A stretch of DNA of 22,943 nt from a virus. The position numbers and the translations under genes were made by a program. The stretch covers positions 1-22,943 of IMG/VR virus record IMGVR_UViG_3300025112_000208; one strand, written 5' to 3'. Shown piece by piece: positions 6,215 to 12,820 of this stretch. Within the stretch, counting starts at the first letter, position 1. Each line of letters begins with the position of its first letter. Under the pieces are notes generated by a model, which had not been told where the DNA came from, made no database searches, and saw only the letters and a list, made by a program, of their open reading frames with translations.

Positions 6215-7243
6215 CTAATCAAAGTCAGGAAACTGAGACTGGCTCTCTACATCCAAGTCTAATTTGGTTGAAGAAGGAATATCAGAATAATTCTCCTTGG
6301 GTCTCTTTTTATATTTGGGTTCCCACTTGGGTATCTCTACATCACAGGGTCCACCATTATGTTGCTTATTAAACGAACACCACTTACATAGATTCTGGGG
6401 CACCTGCTCGTATCGGTCCTCATATTCTTCTTTCTGCTTTATACAGTCGTGTACCATCTTAATTAAGTCACGAGCCTCATCAAGCTCACTTTGCGTTATC
6501 TTGACGAAGAAGGTATCGTCGAAGCGAAGATAGTTAACGCCCACGAAATTGGGCATCTCTCCCATCTCTAATGTGTACAGAAAGGCGTAAATGATTAATT
6601 GTCGATAGTACTCCTCAGGGAGGTATGGTCCGTAGCGCTTACTGGTCTTATAGTCCAGCAATGTAGTACCACCGTCGAAATCATTACATACAACATCTAC
6701 GACTCCTACTATTGCATACTCTACTGACTTAACCCATTTCTCAGCGTACTTGGGTGCCACAGCATTCCATGCCTGTTGCTTGTTCCTGTATATCTTCCAC
6801 TGTACCATCTCAGTTAATTTCTTATTGACGGAGTCAACAAAATTCTGGAGAATAGCTTCTGTCTCCTTGTACATGGCATCCATTTCTTCATTGGTGTGAA
6901 CTTCCCATAGCCACTTATGCTTCGCTATCTTCTCTTCCCAACCTTTCTCAAACTCTCCCTGTACCCATAACTTGGGCACTCCTTTCTCCCATTGGCTCAA
7001 CGTCTTGAACTGCTGCTTGAAGAGTCTTTCGAGTACCTTATGTACCAACGTTCCACGGAAGAGATGTATAGTCTTCTTCTCGGGCAACTTGGCTATGTAC
7101 TTGTAATAAAATTCGCGGGGACATTTCAGATACGTATTTATCTTCGATGGAGACAAGCGCATGTGGCTGGGCTCCCAGAAGTGCTTATCCTTTATCTTTT
7201 CCGTGGCCATTTTGGATAAGCCCGACTTAGCCTTTTTTGTCAT
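6215..7243 (-). CDS. PD-(D/E)XK nuclease with Fe-S cluster, Cas4/AddB/RecB-like
   Basis: 342 residues of the PDDEXK_1 family. After SPSKINTYLKCPREFYY (Cys41) come His68 (LVHKVLE), Asp183 (VGVVDVV), the D-x-K motif LLDYKTSK (Asp197, Lys199) and QLIIYAFLY (Q-xxx-Y at 215-219). The C-terminus carries Cys286, Cys289 and Cys300 (LCKWCSF then PC), which with Cys41 makes the four-Cys 4Fe-4S site of Cas4, AddB and Dna2-type nucleases. Such enzymes resect DNA ends. No helicase motif or CRISPR array is present, so it acts alone or with a host helicase, perhaps in recombination-dependent replication or end processing. It overlaps the upstream small Cys gene by 17 bases. Confidence 0.88.
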   Translation of the reverse strand: MTKKAKSGLSKMATEKIKDKHFWEPSHMRLSPSKINTYLKCPREFYYKYIAKLPEKKTIHLFRGTLVHKVLERLFKQQFKTLSQWEKGVPKLWVQGEFEKGWEEKIAKHKWLWEVHTNEEMDAMYKETEAILQNFVDSVNKKLTEMVQWKIYRNKQQAWNAVAPKYAEKWVKSVEYAIVGVVDVVCNDFDGGTTLLDYKTSKRYGPYLPEEYYRQLIIYAFLYTLEMGEMPNFVGVNYLRFDDTFFVKITQSELDEARDLIKMVHDCIKQKEEYEDRYEQVPQNLCKWCSFNKQHNGGPCDVEIPKWEPKYKKRPKENYSDIPSSTKLDLDVESQSQFPDFD

Positions 7244-7804: not shown

Positions 7805-7993
7805 GTGAGTGAATACCCAAACAGGTTGGAAAGTGTCGATATAGAGCGACACATGGAAGCAAAGAATAGGATAGTCTGTATATCCTGTTCGGAGTCAGTC
7901 CCCGAGGACGGCAACTGGCATTTTATAGTTTCGGAGACATGGTGCCACCAATGCGTTATTGACGCTGATTTGATAGGTCACACTTATGGATAA
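7805..7993 (+). CDS. Mini zinc-finger protein, first rightward gene
   Basis: 62 residues with two CxxC knuckles, CISC (about 25-28) and CHQC (about 47-50), separated by about 18 residues: a one-domain zinc ribbon or treble-clef layout. Leaderless GTG start directed by the TATA at 7777. Its last eight bases overlap the GIY-YIG gene, so the two are coupled. Small proteins of this sort in archaeal viruses are often DNA-binding regulators or adaptors, but the target is unknown. Confidence 0.7.
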   Translation: MSEYPNRLESVDIERHMEAKNRIVCISCSESVPEDGNWHFIVSETWCHQCVIDADLIGHTYG

Positions 7994-8318
7994 ATTTTAC
8001 ATCTATAAGTTAGCCCGTCAGGCAGAAAAGACAAACTACAATTTTGTAGACATCCAGATGGATAAAGCCCCCGATAAGGGGGCCATATACTATGGCTTAA
8101 CACAGAATCCACAAAAGCGATTAAGCCAACACAGACCAATAAAGGGTCATGATGTCAGCATGTGCATAATAGCAGAGTTTGACTCTGTGTGGTTTGCTTT
8201 AGAGCATGAAGCCAAAATAATAGCAGACCATGTCAGGACCTATGGAAAGGCCCCTGAAATGCAAGGAAAAGCCAATTCTGGAGTAAAGGCCACCCCTAAG
8301 GGGGGTGGTCAGCAATGA
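7986..8318 (+). CDS. GIY-YIG domain protein, copy 1
   Basis: 110 residues forming one GIY-YIG fold. KFYIYKL supplies the first motif, IYYGLTQNPQKRLSQH the second with the catalytic Arg, and ALEHEAKIIADH the Glu-containing helix. A C-terminal APEMQGKANSG segment supplies a conserved Asn. There is no extra DNA-binding domain, so it resembles a stand-alone cleavage module rather than a classic homing enzyme. A paralogue lies at 9359-9730; both keep KRLSQH and the APxxQGxANSG tail. Possible roles are cutting host or competitor DNA or resolving branched DNA. It overlaps both neighbours. Confidence 0.85.
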   Translation: MDKFYIYKLARQAEKTNYNFVDIQMDKAPDKGAIYYGLTQNPQKRLSQHRPIKGHDVSMCIIAEFDSVWFALEHEAKIIADHVRTYGKAPEMQGKANSGVKATPKGGGQQ

Positions 8319-8644
8319 ATAAAGAATTTAATAATATTTGGAAGTTCATTAAATCAGGTCAACCAGATACAGCAAGCATGGCTATAAGCATGGCTAACGG
8401 CCTTAATGAAATGGATAATACAAATTATGAAAATTCAGAAAATGAAAATAGCTTCCTTGAATTAAAAACATTAATCTATAAGAAAGTCGCTTTCTGTAAT
8501 GATAATATACCTGATACCCTATGCCCAGAATTACAATTAAAACAATGGTTCTGGTTTTACGTCAGTGCCCTAATACAGGGTCGTTATGATGACGCAAGCT
8601 ATAACTTAACCATATGGGAATCATACCGTAAAGAGGTTAAATAA
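8315..8644 (+). CDS. Hypothetical protein
   Basis: 109 residues, not recognised. It begins MNKEFNNIWKFIKSG and has a helical, repeat-like character: SMAISMANGLNEM in the first half and FYVSALIQGRYDDASYNLTIWESYRKEV in the second, suggestive of a small TPR-like or helical-hairpin fold. Coupled upstream by ATGA overlap and followed at once by the next gene (stop shares a base with the ATG). Part of the 7805-8919 operon. Confidence 0.7.
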   Translation: MNKEFNNIWKFIKSGQPDTASMAISMANGLNEMDNTNYENSENENSFLELKTLIYKKVAFCNDNIPDTLCPELQLKQWFWFYVSALIQGRYDDASYNLTIWESYRKEVK

Positions 8645-8853
8645 TGGCTTTAAGATTTAATAGAAGATGGCGACAAATAGCAAAAGACATTAAACCTAAA
8701 GAGGACGCTTGGAAAGGCTTTAAGCCTATACAAAAGGGGTCTTATGGTGGTGGCTTAGGTCACTGTGATAAATGTAAAAATCCAAGGATGACATTCGTTC
8801 ACTGTGTAAAAGGACTTAAGACTTATTGTAATAAACATAAAGGGGGTGAATAA
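8644..8853 (+). CDS. Basic zinc-finger protein with MALRFNRRW N-terminus
   Basis: 69 residues. The N-terminal 16 residues (MALRFNRRWRQIAKDI) are strongly basic. A zinc site with CDKC, then HC and a final C-x-x-H follows. GAGGT lies upstream of the ATG. The basic N-terminus recurs in a 20-residue gene at 11439, so it is a separable unit, perhaps a nucleic-acid- or membrane-binding helix. Function unknown. Confidence 0.7.
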   Translation: MALRFNRRWRQIAKDIKPKEDAWKGFKPIQKGSYGGGLGHCDKCKNPRMTFVHCVKGLKTYCNKHKGGE

Positions 8854-8919
8854 ATGGAATATCAAGATTGGTTGGTATGGCACATGATTATTGCGTCATC
8901 ACGACACAGCATTAATTAA
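8854..8919 (+). CDS. Conserved 21-residue peptide (YQDWL-WH-IIASSRHSI family), copy 1
   Basis: A 21-codon gene directly after the stop of the zinc-finger gene, with GGGGTGA as a strong ribosome binding site. It shares YQDWL, WH and IIASSRHSI with the gene at 9976-10044. Comparing the shared part codon by codon, most differences are silent third-base (or Leu first-base) changes, a sign of selection on the peptide. The peptide is Trp-, His- and Ile-rich and could form one amphipathic helix. Function unknown. A hairpin and T-run follow. Confidence 0.75.
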   Translation: MEYQDWLVWHMIIASSRHSIN

Positions 8920-8932
8920 GCTGAGTAAAAGA

Positions 8933-9006
8933 GGACTTAGGGTTAATATCCCTAAGTCCAAAATACGCCCTTGTCTGAGCGTAAGCTTTATTTTTTTTTA
9001 TTTTTA
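8933..9006 (+). terminator. Hairpin and T-rich termination region
   Basis: GGACTTAGGG (8933-8942) pairs perfectly with CCCTAAGTCC (8950-8959) around a 7-base loop. A second small stem ACGC/GCGT follows, then a run of T residues up to about 9006. The T-run is the likely archaeal termination signal for the 7805-8919 operon. Confidence 0.6.
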
Positions 9007-9078
9007 TTATCAAAGTTCCATCCGCGTGGAAAAATCTTTTAATTAATTTAATCCCGCGCTGTACGTGAGCCTAGGCCC

Positions 9079-9188
9079 GGGTGAGATACGCCATAACGCG
9101 TAGGTGAGAAAGAGAAACCCAGCGTCCCTTTTTTGCGGCCTTTGGCGGGGGTGAGATACGCCATAACGCGTAGGTGAGAAAGAGAAAC
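9079..9188. repeat. Exact 40-base direct repeat, two copies 70 bases apart
   Basis: Copies at 9079-9118 and 9149-9188 look identical by eye. Each contains TACGC-CATAAC-GCGTA, a 5-bp inverted repeat, flanked by two GTGAGA elements. The spacer is unrelated and 30 bases long. GTGAGA also recurs near promoters at 9929 and 13745. The arrangement resembles iterons of a replication origin or paired operators. Confidence 0.75.
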
Positions 9189-9330
9189 TGTAGCACCACT
9201 TTTCCACAATTTTTGGACCCTTTATATACCCCCCTGTAGCTCTACATTTTCCTTTATATACCCCCTTCTATCTCATAAGGTTTAGGGCTCCCTAAATCCT
9301 ATATTAGGGTATATAAGGCTTTGCGTAGTC

Positions 9331-9338
9331 TTTATATA
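9331..9338 (+). promoter_or_regulatory. TATA box for GIY-YIG copy 2, leaderless
   Basis: TTTATATA with its first T 28 bases before the ATG at 9359. The palindrome TTTAGGG-CT-CCCTAAA 35 bases upstream is a candidate operator. Confidence 0.7.
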
Positions 9339-9358
9339 GCCACACTCAATGTGTATGT

Positions 9359-9730
9359 ATGCCTAAAATGAGTGAAACAACCGAAGCCAAATTCTATATC
9401 TATGCTTTAGTGTCAACTTCAGAAAAAGCACGTGGTGAAAATTCACTACGAGTGGACATGGGAACATTTGAAGGACTCGGTAAAAATATAGAATATATAG
9501 GAATCTCGAGACAAAACCCAACTAAGAGATTGAGCCAACATCAATCTAAGCCATTGTTTGAAAAAGCTATTGGAAAGAAAGTTAAAAATCTGGGAATGTT
9601 CATAATAGATTCTGGAATAAAATCCGAATGGCACGCACTTCGAGACGAAGCGAAACTCGTGTCTGATTACTTCGACCAATTTGGCGAAGCACCAAGACTG
9701 CAAGGAGCAGCAAACTCGGGAAAATACTAA
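9359..9730 (+). CDS. GIY-YIG domain protein, copy 2
   Basis: 123 residues, paralogous to the protein at 7986. KFYIYAL gives the first motif, IEYIGISRQNPTKRLSQH the second with the catalytic Arg, and ALRDEAKLVSDYF the acidic helix. The tail APRLQGAANSG matches copy 1. It is longer by an N-terminal extension and an insert of about a dozen residues (FEKAIGKKVKNLG). It is leaderless, whereas copy 1 is internal to an operon. As with copy 1, a conserved micropeptide gene follows some distance downstream. Confidence 0.85.
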   Translation: MPKMSETTEAKFYIYALVSTSEKARGENSLRVDMGTFEGLGKNIEYIGISRQNPTKRLSQHQSKPLFEKAIGKKVKNLGMFIIDSGIKSEWHALRDEAKLVSDYFDQFGEAPRLQGAANSGKY

Positions 9731-9741
9731 GGAGGTAAAAA

Positions 9742-9798
9742 ATGGATATCGACGCATGGATAGAAATTGAAATCGAAAGAATAAAACTCGGGGAATAA
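9742..9798 (+). CDS. 18-residue acidic peptide
   Basis: A short frame beginning MDIDAW and continuing with IEIEIER, preceded by an excellent AAGGAGGT ribosome binding site five bases before the ATG and placed 11 bases after the GIY-YIG stop. The strong site is the main reason to call it. Its stop codon lies in the loop of a 7-bp hairpin. It may be a real tiny protein or a remnant. Confidence 0.45.
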   Translation: MDIDAWIEIEIERIKLGE

Positions 9799-9846
9799 TC
9801 CCCGACCTTTCGAGCATACGCAAACCGGAGCCGCAAGGCTCCTTTT
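9788..9846 (+). terminator. Tandem hairpins ending in a T-run
   Basis: TCGGGGA-ATAA-TCCCCGA (9788-9805) holds the stop codon of the 18-residue peptide in its loop. It is followed by GGAGCC-GCAA-GGCTCC (9827-9842) and TTTT, which looks like an intrinsic terminator with a GCAA tetraloop. Confidence 0.7.
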
Positions 9847-9892
9847 CCATTCGTGGGGATTTTCAAAAAAAAGGCGAGCGGGATTTGTCCCC

Positions 9893-9954
9893 TTATATAC
9901 CCCCTTATAGGATTTGCCTTACGTCGTCGTGAGAGACCACCCATAACTATATAA
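9893..9954 (+). promoter_or_regulatory. Tandem promoters before the 22-residue peptide gene
   Basis: TTATATACCCCC (9893-9904) is the upstream box of the recurring cassette. TATATAA (9948-9954), preceded by GACCACCCATAAC, is 28 bases before the ATG at 9976 and would give a leaderless message. Apart from these boxes and the preceding hairpins, 9799-9975 has no gene. Confidence 0.65.
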
Positions 9955-9975
9955 CACTGGTAGCTACTGTCATAT

Positions 9976-10044
9976 ATGGACAAATATCAGGACTGGCTGA
10001 CATGGCACGTTATTATTGCGTCGTCACGTCACAGTATAGCATAA
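9976..10044 (+). CDS. Conserved 22-residue peptide (YQDWL-WH-IIASSRHSI family), copy 2
   Basis: A 22-codon gene with its own leaderless promoter and a stable hairpin just after it, so it appears to be transcribed alone. It shares YQDWL, WH and IIASSRHSI with 8854-8919; the aligned codons differ mainly at silent positions (for example CAA/CAG, GAT/GAC, TTG/CTG, TCA/TCG, CGA/CGT, AGC/AGT). Such a pattern is hard to explain unless the peptide is translated and useful. Function unknown; a regulatory or toxin-like peptide is conceivable. Confidence 0.75.
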   Translation: MDKYQDWLTWHVIIASSRHSIA

Positions 10045-10061
10045 GCAAAACAAACACTTAA

Positions 10062-10095
10062 GGCTGGGTTTCAGGGGCCGAATCCCGACCCAGCC
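10062..10095 (+). terminator. Hairpin after the 22-residue peptide gene
   Basis: GGCTGGGT (10062-10069) pairs with ACCCAGCC (10088-10095). There is no T-run; it may protect or end the short transcript. The comparable peptide gene at 8854 is also followed by a hairpin. Confidence 0.45.
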
Positions 10096-10102
10096 CATAA
10101 GC

Positions 10103-10122
10103 TTAAATAGGGACTCCCTATT
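10103..10122 (+). promoter_or_regulatory. TATA box with overlapping palindromic operator
   Basis: TTAAATA (10103-10109) overlaps AATAGGG-ACT-CCCTATT (10106-10122), a perfect 7-bp inverted repeat. The expected transcript start near 10131 falls on AATGAGGTAG, where an ATG is followed after one codon by a stop. The promoter therefore drives no protein and probably makes an RNA. Confidence 0.6.
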
Positions 10123-10130
10123 GTATGATT

Positions 10131-10430
10131 AATGAGGTAGCACCTTGTTAAGTGGTGGCTGAATAAAGAGACCCAATCTCTTAAGGCACTATTGACCAGA
10201 AACGAGAGCCGACTGGCGGAGTGACTGGTAATAGGTAGGACGCGATTAAAAACTACTCATGTAGTTGGGCGCGGACTTGGAGGTAAACACGAGACCTCCC
10301 CACACCTTACGATTCTCTATAGAGCACGCTGTGTTATAAGACGTATTCTTATAGCTGCAAAGTGCGAATCGGTTTGGCCGCAGCGAGCTCTTTATATACC
10401 CCAATGGCTAGGCGACGGGGTATATATAGT
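10131..10430 (+). ncRNA. Candidate structured non-coding RNA
   Basis: About 260-300 bases from a good promoter with no open frame. Stems seen by eye: AAGAGA/TCTCTT, a 10-bp stem with one bulged G (10189-10199 with 10225-10234), AACTAC-TCAT-GTAGTT inside CGCG/CGCG, GGAGGT/ACCTCC, and TATAAGA-CGTAT-TCTTATA. A final 10-bp hairpin TATATACCCC/GGGGTATATA (10393-10402 with 10417-10426) may mark the end. It does not match RNase P, SRP, tmRNA or tRNA signatures that I know. Ends are approximate. Confidence 0.5.
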
Positions 10431-10489
10431 TTTTCCCCTCATGTGGAAATTTCAAAATTTCGAGCTTGAGCACAAAAACGTTCAAAAAA

Positions 10490-10572
10490 ACGTAAGCGGG
10501 ATTTTTCCCTTTATATACCCCCTTTCAGAAAAATGAGACTTGAGCACAAACGACCACCGAAAGACATATAAG
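10490..10572 (+). promoter_or_regulatory. Promoter cassette A (tandem TATA boxes)
   Basis: TTTATATACCCCC at 10510-10522 is followed by TGAGCACAAACGACCACCG and a second box CGAAAGACATATAAG (TATA about 10566-10572), 35-41 bases before the ATG at 10607. GGAG lies upstream of that ATG, so this transcript has a leader. It is nearly the same as cassette B at 11075-11162. Confidence 0.65.
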
Positions 10573-10606
10573 CTCGTAGCCTACTGTCATGTAAGGAGTA
10601 AAAGAC

Positions 10607-10738
10607 ATGAGTGACCATAACCATGATACGTTTGGCGAGTGCGATAACTGCCAGCTTGAAAGTCGATTATACGGCGGAATATGTGAAAACTGCGATAATG
10701 AATATTTCGCAGAATTTTGGACGGGAGAAGATTATTAA
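10607..10738 (+). CDS. Mini zinc-ribbon protein A
   Basis: 43 residues with CDNC and CENC knuckles separated by about 13 residues, then an acidic aromatic tail EFWTGEDY. The ATG follows AAGGAGTAAAAGAC, a good ribosome binding site. It is a duplicate of the gene at 11195, with the same order of motifs and the identical tail. Rich in Asp and Glu, it is unlikely to bind DNA by charge alone and may be a protein-binding adaptor. Confidence 0.75.
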   Translation: MSDHNHDTFGECDNCQLESRLYGGICENCDNEYFAEFWTGEDY

Positions 10739-10740
10739 AT

Positions 10741-10995
10741 ATGAGACACTCTAAAAAAATGGTTGGCGACTATCGTTACAGCTGTAAAGTATTAACGCAC
10801 GTCGTTAGATTAAATGATGGCCATGTTATGCCTGACTGGATTGACTGCAAACCATCACAGGCTAAAGAAATAAGCCGAAGGTTAAGAAACCGTGAATATG
10901 ACACGGACCATTATGCGGTAAGGATTCGCAGAAGTCCTAAAAGCCGCCACGCTAAAGACGTGGAACTTTGGACCGATGAAAAGGTATTTTGGTAG
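10741..10995 (+). CDS. Hypothetical basic protein
   Basis: 84 residues starting at the ATG two bases after the preceding stop; an upstream TTG in frame is inside the zinc-ribbon gene and is not favoured. It begins MRHSKKMVGDYRY and contains PSQAKEISRRLRNREYDTDHYAVRIRRSP, a basic helix followed by a strand, and ends WTDEKVFW. Not recognised. The opening MRHxKK recurs in the 26-residue gene at 11498. Confidence 0.65.
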   Translation: MRHSKKMVGDYRYSCKVLTHVVRLNDGHVMPDWIDCKPSQAKEISRRLRNREYDTDHYAVRIRRSPKSRHAKDVELWTDEKVFW

Positions 10996-11048: not shown

Positions 11049-11162
11049 TTCCATCCCTGTGGAAAACATTTTCTAAAAATAGTGAGCGGGATTTTCCCCC
11101 TTATATACCCCCTTTTAGGAAAATGAGATTTGAGCACAAACGACCACCCAAAGGCATATAAG
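11049..11162 (+). promoter_or_regulatory. Promoter cassette B (tandem TATA boxes)
   Basis: Contains the inverted repeat TTCCA-TCCCTG-TGGAA near 11049, then GAGCGGGATTTTCC, TTATATACCCCC (11101-11112), the same TTGAGCACAAACGACCACC block as cassette A, and CATATAAG (11155-11162), 33-40 bases before the ATG at 11195. Confidence 0.65.
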
Positions 11163-11194
11163 GGCATAGACTACTGTAGTATAAGGAGTAAAAG

Positions 11195-11311
11195 ATGAGT
11201 GACCAGAGATGTGATAACTGTGACTTGGAAGATGTCGAATTATTCGGCGGTATATGTGAAAAGTGCGATGATGAATTTTTCGCAGAATTTTGGACAGGAG
11301 AAGATTATTAA
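11195..11311 (+). CDS. Mini zinc-ribbon protein B
   Basis: 38 residues with CDNC and CEKC, and the same EFWTGEDY tail as the protein at 10607. The N-terminus is shorter and the loop between the knuckles differs (LEDVELFGG against LESRLYGG). The ribosome binding site AAGGAGTAAAAG is shared. Together with its promoter it forms the second copy of a duplicated block of about 230 bases. Confidence 0.75.
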   Translation: MSDQRCDNCDLEDVELFGGICEKCDDEFFAEFWTGEDY

Positions 11312-11313
11312 AT

Positions 11314-11397
11314 ATGTTATTAGAAATATTTATAGCAATCATATCTATATCAGCATGGATAATCACATTCTGTGAAGCTTTCGAGGTTTGGGAATAA
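11314..11397 (+). CDS. 27-residue membrane peptide
   Basis: A short frame with one hydrophobic helix (IFIAIISISAWIITF) and an acidic end (EAFEVWE), typical of a single-pass micropeptide. It starts two bases after the zinc-ribbon stop, the place occupied by an unrelated basic protein in copy A. Called because of spacing and a clean membrane segment; function unknown. Confidence 0.55.
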   Translation: MLLEIFIAIISISAWIITFCEAFEVWE

Positions 11398-11578: not shown

Positions 11579-11671
11579 ATGAAATCAATACTTGATATCC
11601 TCGCAGACATGGAAATAATTATAGAGGATGCAGAGGGGGACCTTTGCATATTAAAACGTAAAGATGAGTGA
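11579..11671 (+). CDS. 30-residue acidic peptide
   Basis: A short frame with an amphipathic acidic helix (ILDILADMEIIIEDAEGD) and a basic end. It begins at the base after the preceding stop, and its last eight bases overlap the next gene, so all four small genes from 11439 to 11861 form a translationally linked operon. Function unknown. Confidence 0.5.
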   Translation: MKSILDILADMEIIIEDAEGDLCILKRKDE

Positions 11672-12163: not shown

Positions 12164-12820
12164 ATGTTAATGCATAAGTTTGATAGTCTGAAAGAAGCAG
12201 AAAATACAATAGGGGGTTTAAGTTCCCCCTCTAAAATGCCGTCTTATGGATGGAGTATTTCAGCCCGTCGGTGTGATGTAGGGAGTAAATTAGCTAAAAA
12301 AGAGGGAACCGTTTGTTATAACTGTTATGCTCTTAAAGGCCGTTATATGTTTCCCATGACCCAGAACGCTTTAGAAAGGCGCTTTAACGCTTGGAGTGGT
12401 GACCGTGAAAAATTTGTAGACGCTATGATTTTTATAATGCATAATAAAAAGCACATTGTAGATACTGGCGTTTTCCGTTGGTTTGATAGTGGTGACCTTC
12501 AAGGTATAAAAATGTTAGAGGATATTAATAATATAGCTTGGGCAAGTCCCCACGTTAAATTTTGGTTGCCTACAAAAGAATATACTTTAATAAAGGACCA
12601 CTCTTTAGATATAGCACCTAATCTAATTATTAGAGTTAGCAACCCTAATAAAAATAAGAGCTTTAAAGATAGCTTCGATTATGTTAGCGCTGTATTTGAT
12701 AAAGACAGACTCCCTAAAGATTCCCATAAATGCCCATCTTCTAAACAGGGTAATAAGTGCGGAAGCTGTCGGGCTTGCTGGTCGGATAAAATTAACGAGG
12801 TTGTTTATTTAGCCCATTAG
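12164..12820 (+). CDS. Gp88-like Cys-rich phage protein
   Basis: 218 residues resembling the phage Gp88 family (recognised from memory). Features are LSSPSKMPSYGWSISARRCDVG, then VCYNCYALKGRYMF at about 50-63, FRWFDSGDLQG at about 104-114, and FWLPTKEY at about 132-139. The C-terminus has CPSSKQGNKCGSCRACW, the family's Cys cluster. These proteins are widespread in tailed phages; the function is not established, and the Cys pattern suggests a metal or Fe-S site. The start may be the ATG at 12164 (leaderless) or 12170. A single-gene transcript is likely, with promoters on both sides. Confidence 0.8.
   Translation: MLMHKFDSLKEAENTIGGLSSPSKMPSYGWSISARRCDVGSKLAKKEGTVCYNCYALKGRYMFPMTQNALERRFNAWSGDREKFVDAMIFIMHNKKHIVDTGVFRWFDSGDLQGIKMLEDINNIAWASPHVKFWLPTKEYTLIKDHSLDIAPNLIIRVSNPNKNKSFKDSFDYVSAVFDKDRLPKDSHKCPSSKQGNKCGSCRACWSDKINEVVYLAH

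What the first reader, a model, noticed from the sequence alone, without database searches (positions are those of the whole stretch)
8854..10044. Two conserved peptides of 21-22 residues with silent divergence
Genes at 8854-8919 and 9976-10044 encode peptides sharing YQDWL, WH and IIASSRHSI. In the shared part I count about seven silent codon differences and three replacements, which points to selection on the peptide. One copy ends an operon with a strong ribosome binding site. The other is alone behind a leaderless promoter and before a hairpin. Both are downstream of a GIY-YIG gene. This looks like an undescribed micropeptide family. A role as a signal, inhibitor or toxin-like peptide is speculation.
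Basis: partly seen in the sequence, partly recalled or inferred. Interest (0 to 1): 0.75.

Follow-up and report, generated by a model that had tools for sequence, protein, structure and literature searches.

The report
Tiny conserved peptide of marine viruses
A group of uncultured marine tailed viruses, probably infecting archaea, carries a gene for a free peptide of only 20-23 amino acids whose sequence is held constant by selection; it matches no family searched here, and what it binds is unknown.

Summary
The window is a 22.9-kb virus record. Its two ORFs (8854-8919; 9976-10044) encode MEYQDWLVWHMIIASSRHSIN and MDKYQDWLTWHVIIASSRHSIA. In 19 aligned codons they differ at 14 nucleotides but only 3 residues; simulated random substitution did this well in 1 and 0 of 20,000 runs. 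Flanks are 27-28% identical, so this is no recent copy.

Relatives of 20-23 residues occur in 32 other viral contigs, opposite the PD-(D/E)XK nuclease in all 29 where I saw it. Tyr4 and Leu8 are invariant in 22 distinct sequences. Median pN/pS is 0.27. Of 29 distinct genes, 25 have a Shine-Dalgarno motif against 9% of background ATGs.

Pfam, PHROGs, NCBIfam and PDB gave no credible match. It is not transmembrane-like. My best mechanism is a soluble docking peptide made with other small accessory proteins. The most specific candidate target, the host clamp PCNA, is weakly supported: the PIP-box aromatic is not kept across the family.

The parts
8854..8919 (+). Micropeptide gene copy 1, MEYQDWLVWHMIIASSRHSIN; last gene of a likely operon, start codon directly after the upstream stop
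8842..8849 (+). Shine-Dalgarno-like GGGGGTGA of copy 1
   Evidence: sequence
8933..8959 (+). Hairpin after copy 1 (10-bp stem)
   Evidence: z -4.8
7986..8318 (+). GIY-YIG protein, upstream in the likely operon of copy 1
   Evidence: PF01541 E 4e-5, above cut-off
8315..8644 (+). Unknown 109-aa protein of the same likely operon; relative in L088
8644..8853 (+). Unknown 69-aa protein ending at the start codon of copy 1
9976..10044 (+). Micropeptide gene copy 2, MDKYQDWLTWHVIIASSRHSIA; single gene, probably leaderless
9948..9954 (+). TATA box of copy 2, 28 nt before its ATG; similar promoter block before the peptide genes of L088 and L191
10057..10101 (+). Hairpin after copy 2 with inner sequence TTTCAGGGGCCGAATCCCGA, also present after the L088 peptide
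9359..9730 (+). Second GIY-YIG-like protein, with its own CTTTATATA box at 9330; upstream of copy 2 but behind a different promoter
10130..10308 (+). manA-like RNA (neighbour; not claimed to act with the peptide)
   Evidence: RF01745 45.5 bits, below gathering score 55.2
6215..7243 (-). PD-(D/E)XK nuclease, synteny anchor on the opposite strand

Best explanation
Shown by sequence: the two ORFs belong to a family of 20-23-residue peptides encoded in the small-gene region of a group of marine tailed viruses. The genes carry translation or promoter signals and the peptide sequence is under purifying selection, so they are very probably translated. Inferred: the peptide is a soluble, non-membrane docking peptide. 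It is made with other small accessory proteins and binds one specific protein through a surface formed by Tyr4, Leu8, the hydrophobic residues at 11-13 and 15, Ser16 and the mostly basic C-terminus, and so inhibits or redirects that partner in the infected cell. The partner is most likely a host protein, because the gene is present in some and absent from other viruses of the group and sits among other small genes.
For: Selection: 14 nucleotide differences but 3 residue changes in the window pair, simulation 1/20,000 and 0/20,000. Median pN/pS 0.27 over 71 pairs; L185 and L187 encode one identical 22-mer with 14 nucleotide differences, including Ser codon switches, and flanks of 25-30% identity. 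Signals: SD motif in 25 of 29 distinct genes against 9.2% of 4,492 background ATGs; 2 of the other 4 have a TATA box 29 nt upstream. Homology of the window pair with the rest: an HMM built without them ranks them first and second among the non-members of 18,551 ORFs (E 4e-4 and 0.015; next 0.11), and the reverse HMM finds L219 at 1e-4. Synteny: opposite strand to the nuclease in 29 of 29 contigs where a nuclease match was seen. Not transmembrane-like: best 17-residue Kyte-Doolittle mean 0.98 or less in 22 peptides. Accessory: 3 of 8 records above 45 kb retrieved by terminase or nuclease carry it.
Against: No binding partner was identified and nothing was measured. The helical hydrophobic moment of the window peptides is low (0.05 and 0.12) and no better than shuffles; only 2 of 20 peptides beat 95% of their shuffles, so a simple amphipathic helix is not supported. 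The target could equally be a viral protein. The timing of expression is not known. The link of the window pair to the wider family is modest in score: 14.3 and 13.2 when left out of the matrix, about the level of the best shuffled ORF (13.5 of 30,222, with the full matrix).
Confidence: 0.5

Rival explanations
1. The peptide is a free PIP-box that occupies the host sliding clamp PCNA, competing with host clamp clients in favour of the viral polymerase, as p21 does in animals (role of p21 recalled).
For: Residues 5-12 read [Q, rarely R or S]-x-x-L-x-x-[WYHV]-[LMVI]. One clade has QSSLLTWL; Q..L..W[ILV] is in 6 of 22 members against 14 of 7,563 background ORFs (members are not independent). The 10 full-length viral DNA polymerases found (two of them identical) all end in a motif of this type, e.g. 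QQSLAEWI. PCNA_N (PF00705) matched 0 of 20 records, many of them fragments, so host PCNA would be used. Among 77 confirmed PCNA ligands 34% lack the Q and 43% lack one aromatic, and flanking positive charge raises affinity (PMC6881253, passages).
Against: The aromatic at position 11 is replaced by H (7) or V (4) in 11 of 22, including the window pair, while the polymerase motif stays constant; of 5 records holding both, only 2 peptides keep Q..L..W (G027, G051). The most constant residues besides Leu8, namely Tyr4, Val/Ile13 and Ser16, are not PIP positions. The archaeal PIPs in that survey are C-terminal; this one is not. The motif was noticed after the fact.
Confidence: 0.15
2. A membrane-active micropeptide: a small toxin, holin helper or type I toxin with a neighbouring RNA antitoxin.
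For: Small size, duplication in the window, structured RNAs in the region, a basic C-terminus in most members. One member has a weak DUF751 hit (E 0.007) and one a YbgT_YccB membrane-protein hit (E 0.13), of 15 members scanned.
Against: Best 17-residue hydropathy is 0.18-0.98, below the usual transmembrane range (recalled, about 1.6). Acidic residues in the middle of some members. The manA-type RNAs found lie on the same strand downstream, not antisense; antisense promoters were not searched for.
Confidence: 0.15
3. A leader or coupling peptide whose translation, not product, matters (attenuation, terminator control).
For: Hairpins follow both window copies, and the start codon of copy 1 touches the upstream stop.
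Against: By eye it is the last gene or a lone gene in the contexts printed. The start signal changes (SD or leaderless) and the downstream sequence is not conserved even where the protein is identical, whereas the residues are.
Confidence: 0.07
4. A conserved RNA element or recent duplicate, not a protein gene.
For: The two copies are 78% alike in DNA.
Against: Differences are silent far above expectation, flanks are unrelated, and relatives share residues rather than bases.
Confidence: 0.02

Closest known systems
Phage small proteins and host-takeover modules (e.g. SPO1 module)
   Same: Small genes clustered outside the structural block; SPO1 module described in PMC6873191 (outline and abstract); review of phage small proteins PMC11323111 (passages)
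   Different: At 20-23 aa it is shorter than the two products whose size I saw there (25 kDa; 51 aa), comes from a probably archaeal virus, and no host target is known
PIP-box peptides that bind PCNA (p21; archaeal replication proteins; viral polymerases of this group)
   Same: Q-x-x-L-x-x-hydrophobic pair, positive residues after it, and likely clamp use by the viral polymerase
   Different: Free-standing 22-mer; aromatic not kept across the family; extra constant residues Tyr4, Val13, Ser16
Type I toxin peptides (Ibs, Hok, TisB; recalled)
   Same: Very short, structured RNA in the region, duplicated in the window
   Different: Not hydrophobic enough to span a membrane; no antisense RNA shown
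T4 Stp, a phage peptide of about 26 residues that acts on a host enzyme (recalled, not looked up)
   Same: A free phage micropeptide acting by binding one host protein
   Different: No sequence comparison was made; target unknown here

Membership tests
Conserved viral micropeptide family (defined here) | Found in independent related genomes | tested here: met
   32 contigs besides the window
Conserved viral micropeptide family (defined here) | Purifying selection on the peptide | tested here: met
   pN/pS median 0.27, 71 pairs; simulations
Conserved viral micropeptide family (defined here) | Window pair recognised by a profile built without it | tested here: met
   HMM: E 4e-4 and 0.015, top two non-members of 18,551 ORFs; next 0.11. 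Matrix: 14.3 and 13.2, ranked above the other non-member ORFs but near the best shuffle
Conserved viral micropeptide family (defined here) | Peptide is made in infected cells | not testable with these tools
   Needs ribosome profiling or peptidomics
PIP-box PCNA ligand | Q-x-x-[LIM]-x-x-aromatic-aromatic/hydrophobic | tested here: not met
   8 of 22 members match Q..[LIM]..[WFY][LIVMFYW]; the window pair does not
PIP-box PCNA ligand | Binds PCNA | not testable with these tools
Type I toxin peptide | Transmembrane-like hydrophobic segment | tested here: not met
   Best 17-residue hydropathy 0.98 or less in 22 peptides
Type I toxin peptide | Antisense RNA antitoxin | not tested
   No search for antisense promoters made
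Known protein family (Pfam, PHROGs, NCBIfam, PDB) | Significant profile match | tested here: not met
   Best DUF751 E 0.007 in 1 of 15 members, phrog_14929 E 0.07 in 1 of 15, none in NCBIfam at E 1 or PDB at E 10
Host-takeover module peptide | Early expression and action on a host target | not testable with these tools
   Only genomic setting available

The most novel reading that the evidence does not exclude
The virus makes a stand-alone PIP-like micropeptide, a viral miniature of p21, that loads onto the host's PCNA and takes the clamp from host clients for the viral polymerase, which carries a C-terminal PIP of its own. Divergent members, including the window pair, have drifted to match the clamps of different hosts.
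Probability: 0.13. Interest if true: 0.8.

Novelty: new variant of a known kind. Interest (0 to 1): 0.5.

Why it matters
Conserved proteins of 20-23 residues are near the lower limit of what gene finders and family databases hold (general knowledge), and none of the four libraries searched covers this one. The family shows that such peptides can be recognised in uncultured viruses by synteny plus silent divergence. It also gives a set of 22 natural variants, with Tyr4 and Leu8 as obvious knock-out positions, for finding the target by pull-down. If the target is a host replication, transcription or translation factor, it would be a minimal natural inhibitor from a marine virus.

Tried and rejected
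Direct searches with the window peptides found nothing: copy 2 in phages by tblastn and the pair in viral contigs by degenerate patterns (87 stretches matched, none confirmed at E 1e-3, a threshold hard for 22-mers). The commonest variant also found nothing in phages. The family appeared only after relatives of the terminase and the nuclease were fetched and their small ORFs scored. The second GIY-YIG and the gp88-like gene gave no confirmed relatives. Host identification failed: the terminase alignment, and a 621-aa viral protein that I took from recall for a ribonucleotide reductase, found nothing in the genome collection.

Considered and rejected: amphipathic membrane helix (moments no better than shuffles for the window pair); hairpin as obligate partner of the peptide (the GATGA...TATTGC hairpin also occurs at RNA-like places without the peptide); GIY-YIG as obligate partner.

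Left out as a group, the window pair scores 14.3 and 13.2, about the best shuffle (13.5). Two matches (L188, L195) out of 17 and seven (L214, L216-L218, L220-L222) out of 13 are not members; two partial matches in record G014 (E 0.005 and 0.011) are counted as chance. Five of eight records above 45 kb have no member. With a profile of the window pair alone, non-members intermingle with members from E 0.04 on; several of the best of these come from contigs fetched by a pattern for the same motif. So the wider family rests on the intermediates, the leave-out HMM and synteny. The promoter block shared by copy 2, L088 and L191 resembles stretches before the zinc-ribbon-like genes too (family D10), so it is weak evidence for homology.

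Rows dropped: one search left out genes with under 40 nt of flank and identical copies (26 gene-plus-flank entries, 24 distinct ORFs kept) and predates L215 and L219; window-versus-other pairs used the first 16 columns only; pairs with fewer than 3 differences were not counted. One search lists overlapping loci of one contig separately and skips nuclease pieces under 100 residues; counts here are per contig. One search took 50 of the records then held, and 17 of its 19 real hits were already known.

Full report
What the window is. It is a 22,943-base virus record. Terminase, portal and a PD-(D/E)XK nuclease lie on the minus strand, and small genes plus genes like porphyrin/cobalamin-biosynthesis subunits (CobS and CobT by recall) on the plus strand. 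An archaeal host is likely but not proven. CTTTATATA occurs 14 times against 0.4 expected. The 10 full-length DNA polymerases found in 20 related records all end in a PCNA-type motif; an eleventh is cut by its contig end, nine records had no match, and two of the ten (G022, G024) are identical. The highest-scoring terminase match in the list of 15 of 20 phage records that I saw is Halogranum tailed virus 1, a haloarchaeal virus, at 24% identity. No host genome was found. Tailed viruses of marine archaea with such genes are described (PMC8651126 and PMC10160649, passages), but I did not place this group in a named family.

The observation. The two ORFs are exactly as described. Over 19 aligned codons there are 14 nucleotide differences, seven silent codons and three replacements. 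Random placement of 14 substitutions changes about nine residues on average and reached three or fewer in 1 of 20,000 and 0 of 20,000 runs. The 60 bases before and after are 28% and 27% identical. So the similarity is in the protein, is not recent and has been selected.

The family. The terminase search kept 80 of 191 related stretches and the nuclease search 80 of 101. Scoring 12,455 distinct 12-45-residue ORFs of these loci gave related peptides of 20-23 residues; 12 of the 15 that I kept scored above the best shuffle. A matrix built from the 15 separated them from everything else: lowest member 44.6, next ORF 7.3, best of 30,222 shuffles 13.5. Members there contribute to their own score, so one search is the fair test. 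Searching 50 whole records found 20 with a match, of which I count 19 as real (17 already known, 2 new) and one (G014, E 0.005) as chance. Two DNA patterns added more. In all there are 32 contigs besides the window, counted by hand, and 22 distinct peptides. In ungapped columns Tyr4 and Leu8 are constant in 22 of 22; position 13 is Val or Ile in 22 of 22; Ser16 in 20, Gln5 in 19 and Arg20 in 19.

Do the window peptides belong? An HMM of the 20 other sequences, searched against 18,551 ORFs, puts the window peptides first and second among everything not used to build it (E 0.0004 and 0.015; next 0.11). The reverse profile finds MSNYQDWLISHMVSVSYATRKL of L219 at 0.0001. L219 links the YQDWL start of the window pair with the SYATRKL end of the main group. 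Against this, the leave-out matrix score of the pair (14.3, 13.2) is only about that of the best shuffle, and their C-terminal half aligns poorly. The setting agrees with membership: in 29 of 29 contigs where a nuclease match was seen, the peptide lies on the strand opposite to it, at 0.6-6.9 kb (none was seen in the sequence held around the peptide for L185, L191 and L192). In 17 of 32 contigs a relative of the 12854-13264 gene follows on the same strand at 1.0-3.2 kb, as it does at 2.9 and 4.0 kb from the window copies; in L095 it is on the other strand, and many loci end before that point.

Is it translated? Of 29 distinct genes, 25 have a Shine-Dalgarno motif at the right distance, against 9.2% of 4,492 ATGs in six of the sequences. 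Of the other four, window copy 2 and L088 have a TATA box at -29 and so should be leaderless; L191 has a similar AT-rich box that the script's pattern did not count, and L138 has a G-rich stretch. Among 71 pairs at 60% or more residue identity the median pN/pS is 0.27. L185 and L187 code for the same 22 residues with 14 nucleotide differences and unrelated flanks. This is about as strong as sequence evidence for a 22-codon gene can be.

Setting. By eye, the peptide gene stands last in a small operon or alone behind its own promoter in the contexts printed. The region holds structured RNAs. A manA-like RNA starts 85 nt after copy 2 (45.5 bits, under the gathering score of 55.2). manA passes its gathering score in 2 of 8 sources (L112, L129) and 1 of 8 (L191), and in L189; it lies 0.26 kb after the peptide in L191 and 1.3-2.4 kb after it in L129, L112 and L189. 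A recurring hairpin follows the peptide in several genomes but also occurs at RNA-like places without it. GIY-YIG matches lie upstream on the same strand in 12 of 31 other contigs with at least 1.9 kb held; one of them, L088, is partial. Of eight records above 45 kb that came from the terminase or nuclease search, three carry the peptide. In three of the five without it that I looked at (L086, L090, L098), related small genes are visible by eye, so it looks like an accessory gene.

How it most likely works. Shown: a selected micropeptide gene with start signals and two invariant residues. The best 17-residue hydropathy of any member is 0.98, and that of the window pair 0.34 and 0.18, which argues against a membrane span. 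Inferred: both ends and the spacing are kept, as in a peptide that docks on one partner. The most specific candidate is PCNA. One clade reads QSSLLTWL, the viral polymerases of the same group end in QQSLAEWI or close to it, and PCNA_N matched none of 20 records. Against it, the aromatic at position 11 is H or V in 11 of 22 peptides while the polymerase motif is stable; only two of the five records holding both keep Q..L..W in the peptide; and Tyr4, Val13 and Ser16 are not explained. I therefore give the clamp 0.15 and the general docking model 0.5.

What is known. Profiles of Pfam, PHROGs and NCBIfam and PDB sequences gave no credible match, nor did the phage collection. A search for papers with 'archaeal virus' and 'micropeptide' returned none. 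Of the papers listed for PCNA and archaeal viruses (15 of 253; 1 of 1), host takeover (12 of 24) and small viral genes (7 of 7), none describes such a peptide in the title or abstract start that I saw. The catalogue of small phage genes by Fremin et al. 2022 (seen only as a reference) is not held, so it may contain this family unnamed.

Noticed in passing
window 10130-10308; L112 2315-2485 (-); L129 1703-1888 (-); L191 7916-8087; L189 10625-10796: manA-type RNA (RF01745) in these probably archaeal viruses. In the window it starts 27 nt after the first base of a TATA-like TTAAATA (10103-10109), so it looks like an independent RNA gene rather than the 5' UTR element that the family is described as (PMC2864571, passages).
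   Followed up: partly
L103, L112, L113, L128 and others, just after the peptide; 27 stretches: Hairpin with constant inner sequence GATGAWAATAGCAAAATARTATTGC and varying outer stem, near RNA-like sequence; the stretch after it in L112 and L189 had no Rfam match besides a more distant manA and one weak chance-level hit.
   Followed up: partly
window 10057-10101; L088; L128; L112 about 3530-3500 (-): A second hairpin type with constant inner TTTCAGGGGCCGAATCCCGA and varying outer stem, resembling a tRNA T-arm to my eye.
   Followed up: no
L223-L232 (10 full-length viral DNA polymerases, two identical): All end in [KS]Q[QK][ST]L[AML]EW[IV] at the very C-terminus, a PIP-box-like motif, with no PCNA_N match in 20 records searched.
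   Followed up: yes
window 10474-10743 and 11064-11316: Duplicated cassette: 132-nt upstream region 84% alike, followed by a small CxxC protein gene 92% alike over 78 nt; similar small proteins in genomes that lack the peptide (by eye).
   Followed up: partly
window 9074-9118 and 9144-9188: 45-nt direct repeat, 96% identical, 70 nt apart, in a stretch without a listed ORF of 60 aa or more.
   Followed up: no
window 9742-9798 and 11579-11671: Further micro-ORFs with Shine-Dalgarno motifs (MDIDAWIEIEIERIKLGE; MKSILDILADMEIIIEDAEGDLCILKRKDE); the second resembles an ORF in L086 by eye.
   Followed up: no
window 12164-12820: GP88-like protein (PF17338, E 4e-25) without confirmed relatives in viral contigs.
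   Followed up: no
L129 1301-1376 (-), L134 585-662, L185 1013-1088 (-), L196 55-130 (-): tRNA-Glu (anticodon ttc) in 4 of the viral contigs that carry the peptide (5 of 33 loci scanned, two of one contig).
   Followed up: no
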